NCBI GenBank assembly: GCA_947259005.1
Contig: CAMYKP010000012.1
Coordinates: 276,384 to 340,383, forward strand
Direction of reading: 5' to 3'
DNA: 64,000 nt
From: an uncultured Parasphingopyxis sp.
Lineage (GTDB): Bacteria; Pseudomonadota; Alphaproteobacteria; Sphingomonadales; Sphingomonadaceae
Both the position numbers and the translations under genes were made by a program. The notes beneath the pieces were generated by a model. That model had not been told where the DNA came from. It did not search any database and saw nothing but the letters and a program-made list of their open reading frames with translations. This document shows, one piece after another, positions 9,928 to 42,308 of the stretch; positions within the stretch are counted from its first letter, which is position 1; each line of letters opens with the position of its first letter.

Positions 9928-10102
9928 CGGATGACTTCAGACCCGGCTCAGACCATGTCGGTACTCAGCTCAGCTAGAGGTTACTGCAACATCAGGGCGG
10001 TCAGACATTCCATGCATATGGCATGAAATTCGAATGTCCGCTTTTGGCCAGTGGCGGACATCAAAGCGGCCCTGAAACAATGTCCGCTAACCACCCAATA
10101 GC

Positions 10103-10324
10103 TGACATCGCGCCTTGCGAGGGCCAGGAAAGCTGGCGGTCCGCTTTTGGGGAAACGGTAAAAACACCTTGAATGTCTGGTACTAGGGCGCAAAGCAGGT
10201 GATGGATCTCTTAATGCCAGAGTCTACAATGGGCCGAAAACAGGCATCCAGACTGACGCACATTTCCGCCGCCACAAAAAAAGCCGGGCAGTTTCCCGCC
10301 CGGCCCTTCTTTGCAAATGGTTGC
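10103..10324. repeat. ~220-bp direct repeat, copy A (copy B 12023-12244)
   Basis: From about CATCGCGCCTTGCGAG through the terminator to TTGCAAATGG, this segment aligns with 12023-12244 in the same orientation. Long blocks are identical, for example GGAAAGCTGGCGGTCCGC. The least conserved part is the middle (10215-10265). The copies flank the TPR gene. No coding function is evident. Confidence 0.8.
10275..10304 (-). terminator. Rho-independent terminator downstream of TPR gene
   Basis: On the minus strand the stem GCCGGGC...GCCCGGC (10283-10289 with 10298-10304) is followed by a T-run (the A-run 10275-10282 on the plus strand). It lies about 130 bases after the TPR stop. Near-identical terminators follow the barrel gene (12195-12224) and pstS (24404-24435). 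Confidence 0.8.
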
Positions 10325-10364: not shown

Positions 10365-10388
10365 GTCCGCTTTGCGCCCAAAGCGGAC
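10365..10388. repeat. Hairpin repeat GTCCGCTTTG-CGCC-CAAAGCGGAC, copy 2
   Basis: Identical 24-base hairpin to 6699-6722, with perfect 10-base arms. It lies 46 bases downstream of the TPR gene stop, between that stop and the terminator. Confidence 0.75.
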
Positions 10389-10434
10389 ACGGCTAGAATC
10401 AGCATGCAAGCGGCTAATCTGAATCCCTATGCCC

Positions 10435-11847
10435 TCAGGCGCGGCTCCAGCGCGCAGCGGGAGGGGTCCTGCACATTCGCGATGGCATTCGAACTTCCTC
10501 ACCGCCTCTGATAACAATGTCCGTCACTATCATGCAGGTCCTGCCAGCCGTTTCTTGGGATGCGCCCGCCGTCTGGGCTCGCGCTAGCTGCTGCACTGTT
10601 ACGAGGTTTTCGCGCGCGGCCAGACCATTTTCATCCTGCGCGTCTGGCGTGCGATCAGTGTATTCCAGAACCTCGCGATACAGGTCCTCCGCCTCCGAGT
10701 AACGACCCTGTTCCTGAAGCGAGACGGCGAGGTTAGTTTTAGCGGCCAAGGCTTCCGGAGCATCGGACCCAAGCTCTGCTTCTGCAACTTGCATAGAACG
10801 GCGCGCCAGCTGTTCGGCTTCCTGATTCCTACCCTCTGCGACCAACAAGCTCGCAAGATTGTTTCGGTTTAGAACTGTATTGGGATGGCTTGCTCCAACC
10901 GTGCGTTCTTGGGCTTCCAGTGCCCTTCGATAGAATTGTTCCGCCTCCGTGTTTCGGCCCTGATCGTGGTAAAGTACGGCTAGGTTGCCGATTGAGACGA
11001 GCGTATCGGGATGCTCGGCGCCCAAAGTCGTTTCCCGGAGTTCAACAATCATTTGGAGAAGTTCCTGTGCCTCGGCGAGCAGGTCTGCTTCATACAACAT
11101 CCGCGCAATATTGTTCGCTCCGTCAAGCGTTACGGGATGCTCCAAACCCAATTCACGCTCACTGGTTTCAAAAGCTTGCGTAAAAAGGGATAAGGCCTCT
11201 TCGAACCGGCCTTGCTCCCAATATAGAGTTGCCAAATTGTTCATCGTTGTCAGTGTCCCGGGGTGCCCGGGACCCAAGGTGCGTTCAGCAGTTTGGAGCG
11301 CCCGCAGATAATGTGGCTCGGCTTGCCTCAACTGACCCCTTTGCAGGTAAAGCGTGGCCAGATTATTCACCATAGCCAGCGTGAAATTATGATCCGGACC
11401 CAAGACACGCTCAAAACCGTTCAGCGCCCGCCGAATAAGCGGTTCCGCTTCGGCATCGCGGCCCTGATTAAAACGCAAAGCAGCCAGATTTGCGACGGTC
11501 TCCAACGTGTCGCTATGTTCGGGGCCAAGGGTTCGTTCCTGGGCTTCAAGCGTTCTCCGGATAAGTAATTCCGCCTCTGCGTAGCGCCCCATGGCGATTT
11601 GTGCCGATGCCAAATGCGTAAGCCATGAAAGCGTCTCCTGATGCTCAGGCCCCAGGGTGCGTTCACTTTCCTCAAACTGTTGCCTGGCCAGTTCTTCGGC
11701 CTCTGCATATTGGCCGGCGTCGTAAAGTTCTTGTCCTCTGTCCTCCAAACTCTGTTGAGCTCCAGCTGGTACTGCCCACATCAAGGCGAAAGAGAGCAAG
11801 ACGACAAAGGAAGACAGATTTACCAGATGGCTCATCCGTTGAAGCAA
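10435..11847 (-). CDS. Exported tetratricopeptide protein (kinesin-light-chain-like TPRs)
   Basis: The 470-residue protein has a signal peptide ending in VPAGAQQ (about residue 31). It is followed by eight or nine 42-residue TPR units with the recurring ERTLGPEHxxTL and NNLAxLYxxQGRxxEAE patterns. It is probably a periplasmic protein-interaction scaffold; no enzymatic domain is visible. The start is uncertain: TTG at 11847 gives the full frame, and an ATG four codons later is equally possible. The gene is noticeably poorer in GC than its neighbours and lies between two copies of a ~220-bp repeat, which suggests it arrived or duplicated as a unit. Confidence 0.8.
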   Translation of the reverse strand: MLQRMSHLVNLSSFVVLLSFALMWAVPAGAQQSLEDRGQELYDAGQYAEAEELARQQFEESERTLGPEHQETLSWLTHLASAQIAMGRYAEAELLIRRTLEAQERTLGPEHSDTLETVANLAALRFNQGRDAEAEPLIRRALNGFERVLGPDHNFTLAMVNNLATLYLQRGQLRQAEPHYLRALQTAERTLGPGHPGTLTTMNNLATLYWEQGRFEEALSLFTQAFETSERELGLEHPVTLDGANNIARMLYEADLLAEAQELLQMIVELRETTLGAEHPDTLVSIGNLAVLYHDQGRNTEAEQFYRRALEAQERTVGASHPNTVLNRNNLASLLVAEGRNQEAEQLARRSMQVAEAELGSDAPEALAAKTNLAVSLQEQGRYSEAEDLYREVLEYTDRTPDAQDENGLAARENLVTVQQLARAQTAGASQETAGRTCMIVTDIVIRGGEEVRMPSRMCRTPPAARWSRA

Positions 11848-12022
11848 GTTTTCGTGAGCGATTGTGGCCTCTCCTTAGCTTTCTCCAGCAGACTTTCGCA
11901 CAGGCCATGTGTGATTGAAACCTGGACTGGTTAGATGTGGCGGATCCAGTATGCCTAAGACGAACTTCATTTGCCGCACGCCAATTTGCGCACGTCCGTT
12001 TTCCACCCTTTCCACCCATAGC

Positions 12023-12244
12023 GGACGTCGCGCCTTGCGAGAGCCAGGAAAGCTGGCGGTCCGCTTTTGGGGAAACGGGAAAACACCTTGAATGTCTGGT
12101 ACAGGGGCGCAAAGCAGGCGATCGATCTCTTAATGCCCAATGTCCGCAATGGGTCGAAAACGGACATCCGGGCTGACACAGATCTCCGCCGCGCACAAAA
12201 AAGCCGGGCAGTTTCCCGCCCGGCTGTTCTTGCAAATTGGCTGC
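12023..12244. repeat. ~220-bp direct repeat, copy B (copy A 10103-10324)
   Basis: Same orientation as copy A, with small insertions and deletions. Its right end, from the CCGCC before the A-run onward, also matches the DNA at the pstS 3' end near 24394. It therefore joins two kinds of homology at the terminator. Confidence 0.8.
12195..12224 (-). terminator. Rho-independent terminator, copy at barrel-gene end
   Basis: Stem GCCGGGC/GCCCGGC (12203-12209 with 12218-12224), with the T-run on the minus strand (A-run 12197-12202). It lies about 120 bases beyond the stop of the barrel gene, with the pstS remnant between. Confidence 0.75.
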
Positions 12245-34667: not shown

Positions 34668-35933
34668 TTAGTATTCGCTGAGTTCGACCATCATCTTCTT
34701 ATAGCCATGGACGAAACAGGCCGCGACGCGGTCAGGCTCTTCGACGACATTCACGCGCAGGCGGCGGGCCGCCATTTCCTCCAGCAGGATGCGCAGCTGT
34801 AGTTCGGCCAGCCGCGCACCGACGCAGCGATGGATGCCATAGCCGAAAGCAAGATGCCGCCCGGCCTTGGGGCGATCGATGATGATGTCGTCCGGACGCT
34901 CGAACTTGGTCTCGTCCCGGTTGCCCGACAGATACCAGAGGATCATCTTGTCGCCTTCGCTGATCTCATGGCCGAAAAGATTGTGATCCTGGGTTGCCGT
35001 GCGCCGCATATGGGCGAGCGGCGTCTGCCAGCGGATCAGCTCCTGCACGGCATTGGGGATGAGATCGGGATTCTGTTCCAACTTGGCGCGCTCGTCCGGA
35101 AAGGCGTTGAGGCCATAGGCAAAGCCGGACATGGAATTGCGCGTCGTATCGTTGCCGCCGACGATCAGCAGGATCAGATTCCCCATATAGGTGAACTGGT
35201 CCATGCCGCTCATCGCTTCGGAATGGATCATGCGGGAAATGAGATCGGGGGCCTCATCCTTTTCCGCGCGTTCATTCCACAGATTCTGGAAATAGGCGCC
35301 CATCTCGAACAGATGCTCAACGCGCTGCTTGCTCATCTCGGGATCGTTGCCGAGCTCGACATCGCCGGCCCAGTCCGACCAGAAGGTCAGCTTGCGGCGA
35401 TCTTCCCAGGGGAAATCGAACAATGTGGCGAGCATCTGCGTCGTCAGTTCGATCGACACCAGGTCAACCCAGTCAAACGCCTCGCCGCGCGGCATCGCAT
35501 CGAGAATTTCGGCGGTGCGGGACCGGATCACCGTCGACAGCCGCGTCATTTCCGCCGGGGTAAAGGCCGGTGCGACAACACGGCGCTGATCGGTATGGTC
35601 GGGCCGGTCCATCGCGATGAACATCGGCAGGATCAGCTCTTCGCCGTTGGGCAGCAGATCATTATTGTCGAGGATCGTGATGCCATCCGCCGAGGAATAG
35701 ATATCGGGCAGCGCCTCGACATGCTGGATCGGCGTATAGGTGGTGACGTTCCAGTAATCGCCGTGATGGGAGCCGGTGACCTTGTTGATCGGGGCCGTCT
35801 CGCGCATTTCCTTGAAGATCGGCTGCCAGCGGTCTTCGGTGTAGATTTCCGGGACGCTGACATCCCAGGGATGCGGCGCCTCAACGACAACGGTTTCGAC
35901 TTTTTCTTCAGCCGGAGCTGCAGCGGTGGCCAT
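34668..35933 (-). CDS. Cytochrome P450, CYP153-like (downstream paralog)
   Basis: The 421-residue soluble P450 starts at ATG 35933, five bases after GGGAGAG. The I helix is LLIVGGNDTTRNSMSG, the ExxR helix lies in NAVQELIRWQTPLAHMRR, and the heme loop is HLAFGYGIHRCVGARLAE with the Cys ligand. These and AFDWVDLVSIELTTQMLATLFDFPWEDRR are characteristic of CYP153 terminal alkane hydroxylases. It needs a ferredoxin and a reductase, and neither is encoded nearby. It lies 82 bases after a second CYP153-like gene. Substrates are probably alkanes or similar aliphatic chains, by family inference. Confidence 0.88.
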   Translation of the reverse strand: MATAAAPAEEKVETVVVEAPHPWDVSVPEIYTEDRWQPIFKEMRETAPINKVTGSHHGDYWNVTTYTPIQHVEALPDIYSSADGITILDNNDLLPNGEELILPMFIAMDRPDHTDQRRVVAPAFTPAEMTRLSTVIRSRTAEILDAMPRGEAFDWVDLVSIELTTQMLATLFDFPWEDRRKLTFWSDWAGDVELGNDPEMSKQRVEHLFEMGAYFQNLWNERAEKDEAPDLISRMIHSEAMSGMDQFTYMGNLILLIVGGNDTTRNSMSGFAYGLNAFPDERAKLEQNPDLIPNAVQELIRWQTPLAHMRRTATQDHNLFGHEISEGDKMILWYLSGNRDETKFERPDDIIIDRPKAGRHLAFGYGIHRCVGARLAELQLRILLEEMAARRLRVNVVEEPDRVAACFVHGYKKMMVELSEY

Positions 35934-36015: not shown

Positions 36016-37356
36016 TCAATATTTTGAGAGCGTTACCGGCATTGTCTTGTAGCCATGCACGAAGTTCGAGTTCACCCGCTCGATATCTCCGGTGATGGTC
36101 GGGCGCAGGCGCCGTGCGGCCATTTCCTCGAACAGCACCTGCAGCTGGAGCTCGGCAAGGCGGGCGCCGACGCAGCGATGGATGCCATAGCCGAAGGAAA
36201 TCTGCCGCCGCGCATTTTCACGGTCGACGATCCAGTCATTGGGATTTTCGAACACGCTCTCGTCGCGATTGGCCGAGATGTACCACAGGATCATCCGGTC
36301 GCCCTTCTTGATCTGCTTGCCGGCCAGTTCGGTGTCTTCCATGGCCGTGCGCCGCATATGGGCGAGCGGCGTCTGCATGCGGATGGTCTCGGAAACCGCA
36401 TTCTTGATCAGGTCCGGATTCTCTTCAAGCTTACGGGCCTGTTCGGGAAACTGGTTCATGAAATAGACGGCGCCCGACATCGAGTTGCGCGTCGTATCGT
36501 TGCCCCCGACGATCAGCAGCGTGATATTGCCGAGGAAATTACGCTCGTCCATATCGCCCAGCGCGTCGCTATGCGCCATCATCGAGAGGAGATCGGGGCC
36601 GGGATCGCTTTCCTTGCGCTGTTTCCACAGGGCCTGGAAATAGGCTGCCGCTTCCCACATCGCTTCGGCGCGCTTGGGGCCAAGCTCGGGGTCCATCGCG
36701 GCCACCACATCGCCCATCCAGTCCGACCAGTAAGTCAGCTTGCGCCGGTCTTCCCAGGGGAAGCCGAACAGGATGGCGAGCATGCCTGTCGTCAGTTCGA
36801 TCGACACCTTGTCGACCCAGTCGAATTCCTCACCGATCGGCAGGCTGTCCAGCAGTTCGCACGTCCGGGCGCGGACATTCTCGTCGAGACGGCTCATCTC
36901 GCTCGGCGTGAAAGCCGGGGATACGGTGCGGCGCTGCGCCGTGTGTTCGGGGCGGTCCATGCCGATGAACATCGGCAGCGCCATGGTTTCGTCATCCGAT
37001 GAATCGAGAATGGTGAACCCGCCATTGCGCCATGAGGAGCTGTAGATTTCCGGCAGCGATTCGACTTCTATCAGCGGCTTGTAGGTCGTTACCGACCAGA
37101 AGGCGCCATAGATGCTGTCCTTGCAGTAATGGATCGGATCCTCGCGGCGCAACTTTTCGAAAACCGGCTGCCAGCGATCGAGCGCATAAAGTTCGGGGCG
37201 GCTGACATCGATATCCTCAAGCGGCGTATCGACCGTCGCCAGCGGTTTTTCGAGGGTCGAGCGATCAATGCCGTCGCGAAATTCGCGCGCCCATTCTTCC
37301 CGATAAAGCTGCTCCGGGGTCTTTTCCGGAACCGTATGTGCTGGATGCGTCGCCAT
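36016..37356 (-). CDS. Cytochrome P450, CYP153-like (upstream paralog)
   Basis: The 446-residue protein starts at ATG 37356 behind GGAGACA; the frame from 37404 adds 16 residues without a ribosome site. Motifs parallel the downstream copy: ITLLIVGGNDTTRNSMSGAV, SETIRMQTPLAHMRRTAMED and ISFGYGIHRCVGARLAELQ. HYCKDSIYGAFWSVTTYKPL is closer to the classical CYP153A consensus than the paralog's sequence. It is predicted to hydroxylate the terminal carbon of medium-chain alkanes or fatty chains. A TTGACA-type dyad lies 110 bases upstream. Confidence 0.9.
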   Translation of the reverse strand: MATHPAHTVPEKTPEQLYREEWAREFRDGIDRSTLEKPLATVDTPLEDIDVSRPELYALDRWQPVFEKLRREDPIHYCKDSIYGAFWSVTTYKPLIEVESLPEIYSSSWRNGGFTILDSSDDETMALPMFIGMDRPEHTAQRRTVSPAFTPSEMSRLDENVRARTCELLDSLPIGEEFDWVDKVSIELTTGMLAILFGFPWEDRRKLTYWSDWMGDVVAAMDPELGPKRAEAMWEAAAYFQALWKQRKESDPGPDLLSMMAHSDALGDMDERNFLGNITLLIVGGNDTTRNSMSGAVYFMNQFPEQARKLEENPDLIKNAVSETIRMQTPLAHMRRTAMEDTELAGKQIKKGDRMILWYISANRDESVFENPNDWIVDRENARRQISFGYGIHRCVGARLAELQLQVLFEEMAARRLRPTITGDIERVNSNFVHGYKTMPVTLSKY

Positions 37357-39964: not shown

Positions 39965-41029
39965 ATGGACAATCGCCCTACCCTCTCCACCCGCCTGAAG
40001 GCGCAGGCGCTGGCCGAAGGCTTTGCCGCGTGCGGCGTTGCGCTTGCCGATGCCGCGCCCGAAACCGCCGCGCGGCTGCGGCAATGGCTGGCGGAGGGCG
40101 CGCATGGCGACATGCTCTGGATGGAAAGCCGTGCCCATCACCGCGAACGCCCCAAGGCGCTCTGGCCGGAGGTAAATTCGCTCATCATGCTCGGCATGAG
40201 CTATGCGCCGAAAGACGATCCGATGCGGCTGGAGGGCGAAACGGACATTGGCCGCATCTCCGTCTATGCGCAGGGCAAGGACTATCACGACATCGTCAAA
40301 AAGGCGCTGAAGCGCCTCGCCCGCTGGCTTATTGCGGAAGCGGCGAAGGACGGCGCGGAAGCGGACGTCAAAGTGTTTGTCGATACGGCTCCCGTGATGG
40401 AGAAGCCGCTGTCGGAGGCCGCCGGAATTGGCTGGCAGGGCAAGCACACCAACCTGCTGAGCCGCGAAAACGGCAACTGGCTGTTCCTCGGCGCGATCTA
40501 CACGACGCTCGATCTTGACGCGGATAGGCCCGCGACCGACCGCTGCGGCTCCTGCACCGCCTGCCAGAGCGCCTGCCCGACCGACGCCTTCCCCGCGCCC
40601 TACCGTTTGGACGCGCGGCGCTGCATCTCCTATCTCACCATCGAACATGCCGGCCCGATCCCGCACGAATTCCGCGAGGCAATGGGCAACCGCATCTATG
40701 GCTGCGACGATTGCCTTGCCGTCTGCCCGTGGAACAAGTTCGCGGACCAGGCCCGCGCCAACAAGGCGTTTGCACCCCGCGCGGAACTCGCCGCGCCGGC
40801 CCTCGCCGATCTGCTGGCCCTCGACGATGAGGGATTTCGCGCCGTCTTCTCCGGCTCGCCCATCAAGCGGATCGGGCGGCACCGGATGGTGAGAAATTGC
40901 CTGATCGCGGCGGGCAATAGCGGGGATGGAGCGTTGGTGGAGCCTGTGCGGGCGTTGCTCGATGATCCGGATGCGGTTGTGCGGGAAGCTGCCGAATGGG
41001 CAATGGAGCGGCTGGAGGTCTGTCGATGA
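39965..41029 (+). CDS. queG: Epoxyqueuosine reductase QueG
   Basis: The 354-residue enzyme performs the last step of queuosine synthesis, reducing epoxyqueuosine in tRNA with cobalamin. It has two 4Fe-4S clusters: [12 protein letters not shown] and [11 protein letters not shown]. Other QueG features are [44 protein letters not shown] and [15 protein letters not shown]. The C-terminal HEAT-like segment (about residues 276-347) is repeated almost exactly downstream at 41446-41658. The stop overlaps a small unrelated ORF by 4 bases. A queuosine-precursor transporter lies at 57 kb. Confidence 0.95.
40789..41001. repeat. 213-bp direct repeat, copy 1 (3' part of queG)
   Basis: Aligns without gaps with 41446-41658 at a fixed offset of 657 bases. 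I count about ten differences over 213 bases, roughly 95% identity. It encodes the QueG C-terminal residues from about [19 protein letters not shown] to EAAEWA. Confidence 0.92.
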
Positions 41030-41445
41030 AAGACTATACCGAAGAAGCCGAGGAACTATTCCGCCGGTTCGCTGATAGACACGGCTTTCACTACGAAATC
41101 GAGCGCGACGTTCCAATGGAAGTCTGCTGGATATTTCCTGCACAAGACGGGCTGTCCCTTCCAATCACGCTTGGACTCCAAAATTCAGACGAACTCAATT
41201 TCGGCGTTTCCGATTTTTGGTCCTATTTCTTTCCCGTTACGGATGTTGCCGACCAGTTCGAAAGCATCATAAATGCTTGGGTTTCTGGCGATGCCAGAGT
41301 AGCTGTAACAGGTATTCGAAGCCGGCTCCTGCAAATCAGGGAAGGTGACAAATGGAAATCCGTCTATGGCGCTAACGGCTGTCTTTTCCCATTCAGACTG
41401 CGGCCATTTCGATTTATAACGAACTCGTTGTCGTCAGCCGATTAA
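41026..41445 (+). CDS. Small hypothetical protein inserted between queG 3'-end copies
   Basis: The 139-residue product starts at the ATG overlapping the queG stop (ATGA, 41026-41029). It begins [20 protein letters not shown] and contains [12 protein letters not shown] and [20 protein letters not shown]. It has no signal peptide or membrane helix. I do not recognise a family; the general look, a compact acidic alpha/beta protein of ~140 residues, resembles immunity-type or SMI1-like proteins only loosely. Base composition is poorer in GC than queG. Its place between two copies of the queG 3' end indicates arrival together with one copy. Confidence 0.65.
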
Positions 41446-41677
41446 CGCCGTGCCCGCCCTCGCCGATCTGCTGGCCCTCGACGATGCAGGATTTCGCGCT
41501 GTCTTCTCAGGCTCGCCCATCAAGCGGATCGGGCGGGACCGGATGGTGAGAAATTGCCTGATCGCGGCGGGCAATAGCGGGGATGGAGCGTTGGTGGAGC
41601 CTGTGCGGGCGTTGCTCGACGATCCGGATTCGGTTGTGCGGGAAGCCGCCGAATGGGCGATTGCCAAGTTAACTTGA
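41446..41677 (+). pseudogene. Duplicated 3' end of queG (direct repeat copy 2)
   Basis: Bases 41446-41658 are about 95% identical to 40789-41001, and the frame then ends in IAKLT and a stop at 41675-41677. The frame is open from a GTG at 41450, but no ribosome site precedes it. Only the C-terminal ~75 residues of QueG are encoded, without any catalytic part. It probably represents the original queG terminus, displaced by insertion of a unit carrying another queG end plus the 139-residue ORF. Confidence 0.85.
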
Positions 41678-41679
41678 GG

Positions 41680-41958
41680 CTATTGCTCCGTCAGGTCAGC
41701 TCCACACCGATGGCAATGAGGCGTGGGGATTGACCGAGAAATTCTGCTTGGGAACGGGATGATGGGTTCCCCACACTCGGAGCAGGAAAAGGTCGAACGG
41801 TACAATCGAAACATAGCGATATACCAGCCGATCATCAGCGCCATAAGCACCCAAAAAGCTATCGCGATATCGAGTAAAATTCCGATAGGTATTAACAGGA
41901 GAACCGTCACGCCCGGCCCCCAAAGATAGAACCAAAGTGCTTTCCTGTATTTGTTCAC
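41680..41958 (-). CDS. Small membrane protein with zinc-ribbon tail
   Basis: The 92-residue protein has two adjacent membrane helices (ALWFYLWGPGVTVLLLIPIG and LLDIAIAFWVLMALMIGWYI). A cytoplasmic tail follows with two Cys pairs (CSECGEP and CHRCGAD) forming a probable zinc ribbon. The function is unknown. It starts with GTG, overlapping the stop of the upstream lipoprotein gene (GTGA). It converges on the duplicated queG end with a 2-base gap. Base composition is poorer in GC than the flanking genes. Confidence 0.7.
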   Translation of the reverse strand: MNKYRKALWFYLWGPGVTVLLLIPIGILLDIAIAFWVLMALMIGWYIAMFRLYRSTFSCSECGEPIIPFPSRISRSIPTPHCHRCGADLTEQ

Positions 41959-42308
41959 CGCCGCGCCAGCGCCTCGACACAGGCAGCCCGATCCACATCC
42001 TCGCCCGCGGCATTGCGGGCATCGACATAGGTGACAACCGGCTCGCGGCCGCTGCGTTCGGGATAGAGATAGGTGTCGAGCACGCAGCTGGTGCCCCGAA
42101 ACTGCAATTTACGCGCACCGGCTTCGCGGAAATCCTGGTCCGGATCGCCGAACAGGCGCGTCAATCCCGCCGCATCCTGGCCGATCACGCGTTCCAGGCC
42201 GACCGTAGTGGTCATCGGCCGGCTCGTCGTGGTGGGGACCGGTGTCGGCGCGGTCGCACAGCCGGCGAGCGCCACCAGCCCCGAAATCGCTATCGTCTTA
42301 CGCATCAT
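41955..42308 (-). CDS. Small lipoprotein, function unknown
   Basis: The 117-residue protein has a lipobox (VALAGC, Cys about residue 17). A Thr/Pro-rich spacer follows, then a compact domain with GLERVIGQDAAGLTRLFGDPDQDFREAGARKLQFRG. This resembles short SmpA/OmlA-like (BamE-type) lipoproteins and is common in alphaproteobacteria. The LFGxPxxxRxEG-like pattern and two Cys (CVLD, AACVEAL) are visible. It overlaps the EI24 gene by 11 bases upstream and the zinc-ribbon gene downstream. Confidence 0.7.
   Translation of the reverse strand: MMRKTIAISGLVALAGCATAPTPVPTTTSRPMTTTVGLERVIGQDAAGLTRLFGDPDQDFREAGARKLQFRGTSCVLDTYLYPERSGREPVVTYVDARNAAGEDVDRAACVEALARR

What the first reader, a model, noticed from the sequence alone, without database searches (positions are those of the whole stretch)
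40789..41677. queG 3' end duplicated around a small foreign-looking ORF
A 213-base block at the end of queG recurs 657 bases downstream at ~95% identity. Between the copies lies a 139-residue ORF coupled to the upstream copy by ATGA. This is the expected outcome if a unit carrying another strain's queG end plus a neighbouring gene joined into queG, leaving a working gene and a displaced original terminus. It could mark a hotspot for gene exchange.
Basis: partly seen in the sequence, partly recalled or inferred. Interest (0 to 1): 0.62.

Follow-up and report, generated by a model that had tools for sequence, protein, structure and literature searches.

The report
Foreign gene added behind housekeeping gene
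In a relative of Sphingomonas a small foreign gene has been joined to the end of the housekeeping gene queG, leaving the gene's former end behind as a remnant; it is a clear scar of gene uptake, of a kind already known mainly from toxin genes.

Summary
The repeat is real: 216 bp of the queG 3' end (40789-41004) recur at 41446-41661 with 205 of 216 bases identical, and a 139-codon ORF (41026-41445), joined to queG by ATGA, fills the gap exactly. In 8 of 9 same-genus genomes the locus is readable; all 8 have a single queG end followed within 6-179 bp by a convergent gene, without the ORF or the remnant. A second low-G+C ORF (41680-41958, minus) fills the rest of the slot. Best reading: additive capture by homology-facilitated illegitimate recombination. 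A donor piece, queG end plus ORF139, paired with resident queG; its far end was joined without homology, displacing the old end. A member of the same protein family sits in a mirror-image scar in Sphingomonas sp. Leaf17, between a full radical-SAM gene and a truncated 5' remnant of it; 13 other loci of the family show no such scar. ORF139's function is unknown: no family match, weak fold resemblance only. A known kind of footprint, here in a housekeeping gene.

The parts
39965..41029 (+). queG, full length (354 aa), ending in the donor-type 3' end
   Evidence: NCBIfam TIGR00276 449.5 bits against a cut-off of 200, residues 11-349; no stop inside
40789..41004 (+). repeat copy 1, inside queG (inferred donor allele)
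41014..41019 (+). GGAGGT, a ribosome-binding-site-like hexamer inside the last queG codons, 6 nt before the ORF139 ATG
   Evidence: read from the sequence; that it acts as a Shine-Dalgarno site is inference
41026..41445 (+). ORF139, low-G+C (48.6%) orphan gene, translationally coupled to queG by ATGA (41026-41029)
   Evidence: family conserved in sphingomonads
41445..41446 (.). inferred non-homologous joint: ORF139 stop codon against codon 276 of the displaced queG end
41446..41661 (+). repeat copy 2: displaced queG 3' end; frame stays open to the stop at 41675-41677; only the C-terminal part of QueG (TIGR00276 positions 264-336), no iron-sulphur domain
41680..41958 (-). ORF92, low-G+C second foreign ORF (region 41662-41956 has 50.2% G+C), coupled by GTGA (41955-41958) to the gene at 41955-42308
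   Evidence: absent from the 9 same-genus genomes searched; weak zinc-ribbon hits only
41955..42308 (-). conserved convergent neighbour (117 aa, lipoprotein-like start; the label is recalled), normally 6-179 bp from queG

Best explanation
A scar of additive gene capture. (1) In the ancestor queG was followed by a short spacer and the convergent 41955-42308 gene (shown for relatives). (2) One lineage gained ORF92 at the 3' end of that convergent gene (inferred from G+C, absence and the GTGA overlap). (3) In another strain about 5% diverged at this site, ORF139 had become attached to the queG stop codon, read by ATGA coupling (inferred). (4) A fragment of that strain, queG 3' part plus ORF139, entered the first lineage, paired with the resident queG by homology and crossed over inside it, while its far end, just behind the ORF139 stop, was joined without homology to codon 276 of the resident queG. 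The result is a full-length queG of hybrid origin, ORF139 behind it, and the resident queG end displaced downstream as a non-functional remnant beside ORF92. ORF139 gains a place behind a constitutive core gene without needing a promoter of its own. RecA-type recombination between the two copies could remove ORF139 and restore a single queG end (inferred).
For: Repeat and exact layout. Single queG end and short spacer in all 8 readable same-genus genomes; ninth genome G003 gave no queG hit. Low G+C of both ORFs, 48.6 and 50.2%, against 65.8-67.0% for queG, both copies and the neighbour; 2.9% of 500-bp windows of the contig lie below 52%, contig median 60.2%. The tails diverged before they met rather than one decaying: 6 states private to copy 1, 5 to copy 2, no indel or stop in the remnant, 6 synonymous sites against 4 changed codons. 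Both tails end like QueG (ERLEVCR / IAKLT) and continue into different genes. Independent mirror case: in Sphingomonas sp. Leaf17 an ORF139 relative lies between a full radical-SAM gene and a 79-aa 5' remnant of that gene; the remnant still adjoins the upstream DNA that lies beside this gene in at least 4 relatives (listing cut), so it is the displaced original; the full copy is 61% identical to it at protein level and its 5' 300 bp have 62.0% G+C against 69.7% for the rest. The model matches the published account of displaced effector ends and Rhs tips (passages of PMC5361080; PMC2935791) and of homology-assisted illegitimate recombination (passages of PMC2884548).
Against: No donor or recipient strain of the species could be examined, so crossover site, donor and order of events are inferred. 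Of 14 other loci of the family only Leaf17 shows a displaced gene end, so most members did not arrive with such a scar or have lost it. The longest identical run between the copies (82 bp) is slightly long for chance (p 0.055 uniform; 0.025 on variable sites; a post-hoc test of the same run gave 0.0014), hinting at later gene conversion. No G+C or identity step inside queG marks a crossover: nearest relative 87.5% for the first 824 bp, 84.0% for copy 1, 84.6% for copy 2. A ComEC-type gene is present, but the control found it also in genomes not known for competence, so uptake by transformation is not shown.
Confidence: 0.66

Rival explanations
1. Campbell-type integration: a small circle holding the queG end and ORF139 (657 bp if nothing was lost) integrated by one crossover in the queG end, as proposed for Rhs tips.
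For: Gives the same final layout and needs only one homologous crossover; a circular intermediate is the published model for displaced Rhs tips (passages).
Against: Such a circle still needs a non-homologous joint between the ORF139 stop and codon 276 of queG to have formed earlier; no source of a 657-bp circle is known.
Confidence: 0.12
2. Tandem duplication of the queG end within the genome, with ORF139 inserted between the copies afterwards or carried in the duplicated segment.
For: The copies are nearer to each other (95%) than to any relative searched (84% or less) and share 4 states seen in none of the 8 genus relatives.
Against: Needs two separate events; the copies end differently after 41004/41661 and run into different foreign genes; the remnant shows no excess decay; sister copies are equally expected from two alleles of one species.
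Confidence: 0.14
3. Site-specific integration at the queG 3' end by an integrase-bearing element that carries a replacement gene end.
For: Replacement gene ends of this sort are known from islands that insert in gene 3' ends (recalled).
Against: The inserted stretch is fully used by ORF139, the remnant and ORF92; none has a recombinase match in the libraries searched (ORF139; ORF92), and 216 bp with 5% divergence is unlike a short attachment site.
Confidence: 0.03
4. Assembly artefact: two strains' alleles joined in one contig.
For: No reads were available.
Against: The junction keeps both ORFs intact with exact start/stop overlaps and no surplus bases, lies about 43 kb from the contig end, and contamination is given as 0.03%; the Leaf17 parallel is in a named strain's assembly.
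Confidence: 0.05

Closest known systems
Homology-facilitated illegitimate recombination (Acinetobacter baylyi, Streptococcus pneumoniae, Pseudomonas stutzeri)
   Same: One homologous and one non-homologous joint, net gain of foreign DNA, duplication of resident sequence at the joint
   Different: Seen here only as a scar; no donor DNA, RecA test or microhomology at the joint could be examined. The original papers were seen only as reference entries
Displaced effector ends and orphan immunity genes of Vibrio cholerae T6SS clusters (PMC5361080, passages)
   Same: Incoming module anchored in a conserved gene pushes the resident end downstream; arrays of leftovers
   Different: queG is a housekeeping enzyme, there is no toxin part, and ORF139 is not shown to be an immunity gene
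Rhs C-terminal tip displacement (PMC2935791, passages)
   Same: Intact gene followed by a foreign low-G+C part and a truncated gene-end fragment of the same gene
   Different: No polymorphic toxin; the QueG protein itself is hardly changed by the event
Minimal mobile elements of Neisseria (definition recalled; search listing only)
   Same: Accessory gene exchanged between strains through homology in flanking core genes
   Different: The slot is empty in 15 of 15 readable relatives, and the joint is additive, not a clean swap

Membership tests
Homology-facilitated illegitimate recombination footprint | resident sequence duplicated around foreign DNA, one copy inside a full-length gene | tested here: met
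Homology-facilitated illegitimate recombination footprint | empty site without the duplication in relatives | tested here: met
   8 of 8 readable same-genus loci; G003 not readable
Homology-facilitated illegitimate recombination footprint | second joint without homology or with a few bases of microhomology | tested here: inconclusive
   abrupt joint at 41445/41446 seen; the donor sequence beyond it is unknown
Homology-facilitated illegitimate recombination footprint | RecA-dependent anchoring, donor DNA identified | not testable with these tools
   no strains or reads
Polymorphic-toxin / T6SS / Rhs displacement arrays | conserved gene encodes a toxin or effector with exchangeable C-terminus | tested here: not met
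   carrier is QueG, TIGR00276
Polymorphic-toxin / T6SS / Rhs displacement arrays | passenger is an immunity protein | tested here: inconclusive
   no sequence match; TriTu immunity protein 7zhm_C at Z 6.8, rmsd 2.8, 72 aligned, among unrelated folds
Integrative element at a gene 3' end | integrase or other recombinase in the unit | tested here: not met
   unit holds ORF139, the remnant and ORF92 only; no recombinase match for the two ORFs (PADLOC for ORF139 only)
Hotspot / minimal mobile element at queG | different genes in the same slot in related genomes | tested here: not met
   15 of 15 readable slots among 29 loci hold no gene; within this one genome two foreign ORFs share the slot

The most novel reading that the evidence does not exclude
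ORF139 and its relatives are promoter-less passenger genes that spread among sphingomonads by latching onto the ends of core genes: start codon fused to a core gene's stop (ATGA at queG here; GTGA at another core gene in G393), carried with a piece of that gene and inserted additively, at the cost of a displaced gene end (window; Leaf17). Other members move as a unit of about 490 bp between loci (94.1% identity over 492 bp at different neighbours, L062/L063), so core-gene ends would be one of two vehicles.
Probability: 0.15. Interest if true: 0.6.

Novelty: new member of a known kind. Interest (0 to 1): 0.38.

Why it matters
It shows that the displaced-end scar, described mainly for toxin loci, also occurs at housekeeping genes, and that one orphan protein family was involved twice, in opposite orientation, at two unrelated core genes. 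Such scars give a searchable signature (full gene, low-G+C orphan, truncated end of the same gene) for counting additive gene capture, which is otherwise hard to tell from clean insertion. It would also give ORF139 expression behind a core gene without a promoter of its own.

Tried and rejected
Hotspot between species: rejected on 15 of 15 readable slots. Mobile-element carriage: no ORF139 match in plasmids (E 1e-3), phages (E 1e-2) or viral contigs (479 pattern matches, none confirmed); these are absences in those collections only. Defence or immunity assignment: no PADLOC, Pfam or PHROGs match for ORF139; in NCBIfam only BirA at E 0.019, far below its cut-off; no PDB sequence match. Fold: AlphaFold2 model with mean pLDDT 88.5, pTM 0.83; Foldseek gave nothing at E 0.001 in PDB or BFVD; VIA-align best Z 8.7 to the secretion chaperone SycT (rmsd 2.5, 79 aligned), 8.4 to the MotA C-terminal domain, 6.8 to TriTu immunity protein, 5.4 to YbjN, which the tool's own note calls near the level of common arrangements.

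Hairpin-bounded cassette idea for ORF139: several relatives are bounded by TGTCCGC...GCGGACA-like hairpins, but the window's ORF139 is not; the exact palindrome occurs at only 2 places in the own genome. Set aside as a side finding. Repeats near other family loci that are not gene ends: L059 (31-33 bp), L060 (25 bp), L064 (68 bp), inverted repeats at L063/L036 and L064/L037; small protein-level hits at L063 (18 aa) and L064 (26 and 15 aa); its multiple alignment mixed unoriented loci and was discarded; its BLAST part was used, and the loci were re-oriented (L018 was not oriented correctly there). The papers found were seen as listings, except PMC5361080, PMC2935791 and PMC2884548 (passages) and PMC3784515 (abstract and outline).

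Full report
Observation. It is classed in the same family as G486, which carries the Sphingomonas sp. Leaf17 sequence. queG is 39965-41029 (TIGR00276, 449.5 bits). Its bases 40789-41004 recur at 41446-41661 with 11 mismatches in 216. ORF139 (41026-41445) starts on the queG stop codon (ATGA) and its own stop is directly followed by the second copy; the second copy runs as an open frame to a stop at 41675-41677, two bases later ORF92 ends on the other strand, and ORF92 starts on the stop codon of the next core gene (GTGA, 41955-41958). The slot holds almost no non-coding DNA.

Comparison. QueG was sought in 98 genomes (own included): 94 have a match, and only the own genome has a separate second match to residues 276-350. 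Nine other genomes of the genus are held; G003 gave no queG match. In the other 8, queG is followed by the convergent neighbour gene with 6-179 bp between the aligned ends. Over 29 loci with 1.5-kb flanks, the neighbour is found in 16, once on the other side; in the remaining 15 the spacer is 6-179 bp and in the window it is about 926 bp. The other 13 loci could not be used for this question. ORF139 was found in 3 of 148, 8 of 397 and 7 of 376 genomes in overlapping samples, own included each time, and at 10 loci in the GTDB 220 contigs: 9 Sphingomonadales, 1 Caulobacterales. ORF92 gave 7 of 397, own included, the others at 28-36% identity.

Foreign origin. G+C is 48.6% for ORF139 and 50.2% for 41662-41956, against 65.8% (queG 5' part), 66.7% and 66.2% (copies) and 67.0% (neighbour). 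The contig median is lower, 60.2%, and 2.9% of its 500-bp windows lie below 52%, so the contrast with the genome at large is smaller than with the direct neighbours.

What the two tails say. Against 8 genus relatives, 6 states are private to copy 1, 5 to copy 2, and 4 are shared by both alone. The changes are 6 synonymous sites and 4 altered codons, without stop or indel. This is what two working alleles would show; a long-decaying remnant is less likely, though numbers are small. An 82-bp identical run is marginally long (p 0.055; p 0.025) and may mark gene conversion. The full-length gene carries the variant His in place of the Asp or Asn seen in the 8 genus relatives; L011 outside the genus has the same His, so this is no sign of damage.

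The Leaf17 parallel. In L066 (Sphingomonas sp. Leaf17; identical to G486) the ORF139 relative lies between a complete radical-SAM gene and a 5' fragment of such a gene, 79 aa long, ending abruptly. The fragment is 61% identical to the complete copy over residues 4-77; the DNA match is 73% over 161 columns. In at least four relatives (L106, L111, L122, L124; the printed list was cut) the DNA that adjoins the fragment lies directly beside the start of the intact gene, so the fragment is the original start and the complete copy with the ORF139 relative is the newcomer. The first 300 bp of the complete copy have 62.0% G+C, the rest 69.7%, the fragment 66.7%, compatible with a hybrid gene. This mirrors the queG case: there the 5' end is displaced, here the 3' end. 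A DNA-level and a protein-level test over 14 other family loci (about 12 sites, since L062/L065 and L033/L039 share neighbours) found such a displaced gene end only in Leaf17.

Mechanism. The layout needs one homologous joint somewhere in queG and one non-homologous joint at 41445/41446. Published passages describe this as homology-facilitated illegitimate recombination for V. cholerae effector modules (PMC5361080) and for small variable segments (PMC2884548); for Rhs tips a circular intermediate is proposed instead (PMC2935791). I prefer the linear version because the circle needs the same non-homologous joint beforehand. A ComEC-type protein is encoded but says little about competence. ORF139 is preceded by GGAGGT inside the last queG codons, 6 nt from its ATG, so translation by coupling is likely (inference).

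What ORF139 is. A conserved family (14 invariant columns over 14 sequences) with a confident model and no informative match. A small intracellular binding or immunity-like protein is possible on the weak similarity to secretion chaperones and TriTu; I give that no more than one chance in four.

Verdict. Known kind of footprint, new place.

Noticed in passing
window 10091-10318 and 12012-12237, around 10435-11847 (-): A second sandwich: a 230-bp direct repeat (87.8%) with terminator-like and TGTCCGC-type palindromes encloses a 470-aa ORF with TPR-like repeats (label recalled). The stretch 10366-11904 is 91.7% identical in G009, where queG is only about 79% identical, so it moved recently; its left limit coincides with a hairpin (z -4.3).
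   Followed up: partly
L059:2000-3700: Three consecutive small ORFs, one an ORF139 relative, separated by hairpins of the type AATGACCGCTTTCGACCCATTGCGGTCATT in direct orientation; looks like a cassette array, no recombinase sought.
   Followed up: partly
L062:3953-4443 and L063:3952-4443: An ORF139-family unit of 492 bp, 94.1% identical, lies at different neighbours in two assemblies, with hairpin-like ends.
   Followed up: partly
L039:1902-1905: The ORF139 relative in G393 starts on the stop codon of the preceding core gene by GTGA, like ATGA at queG.
   Followed up: no
window 34755-35630 and 36103-36978: Two tandem paralogous stretches, 70.8% identical over 877 bp, probably cytochrome P450 genes (label recalled).
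   Followed up: no
G016:C1:973148-974117: queG of G016 is matched in three pieces with a stop codon inside one, so it looks broken in that assembly.
   Followed up: no
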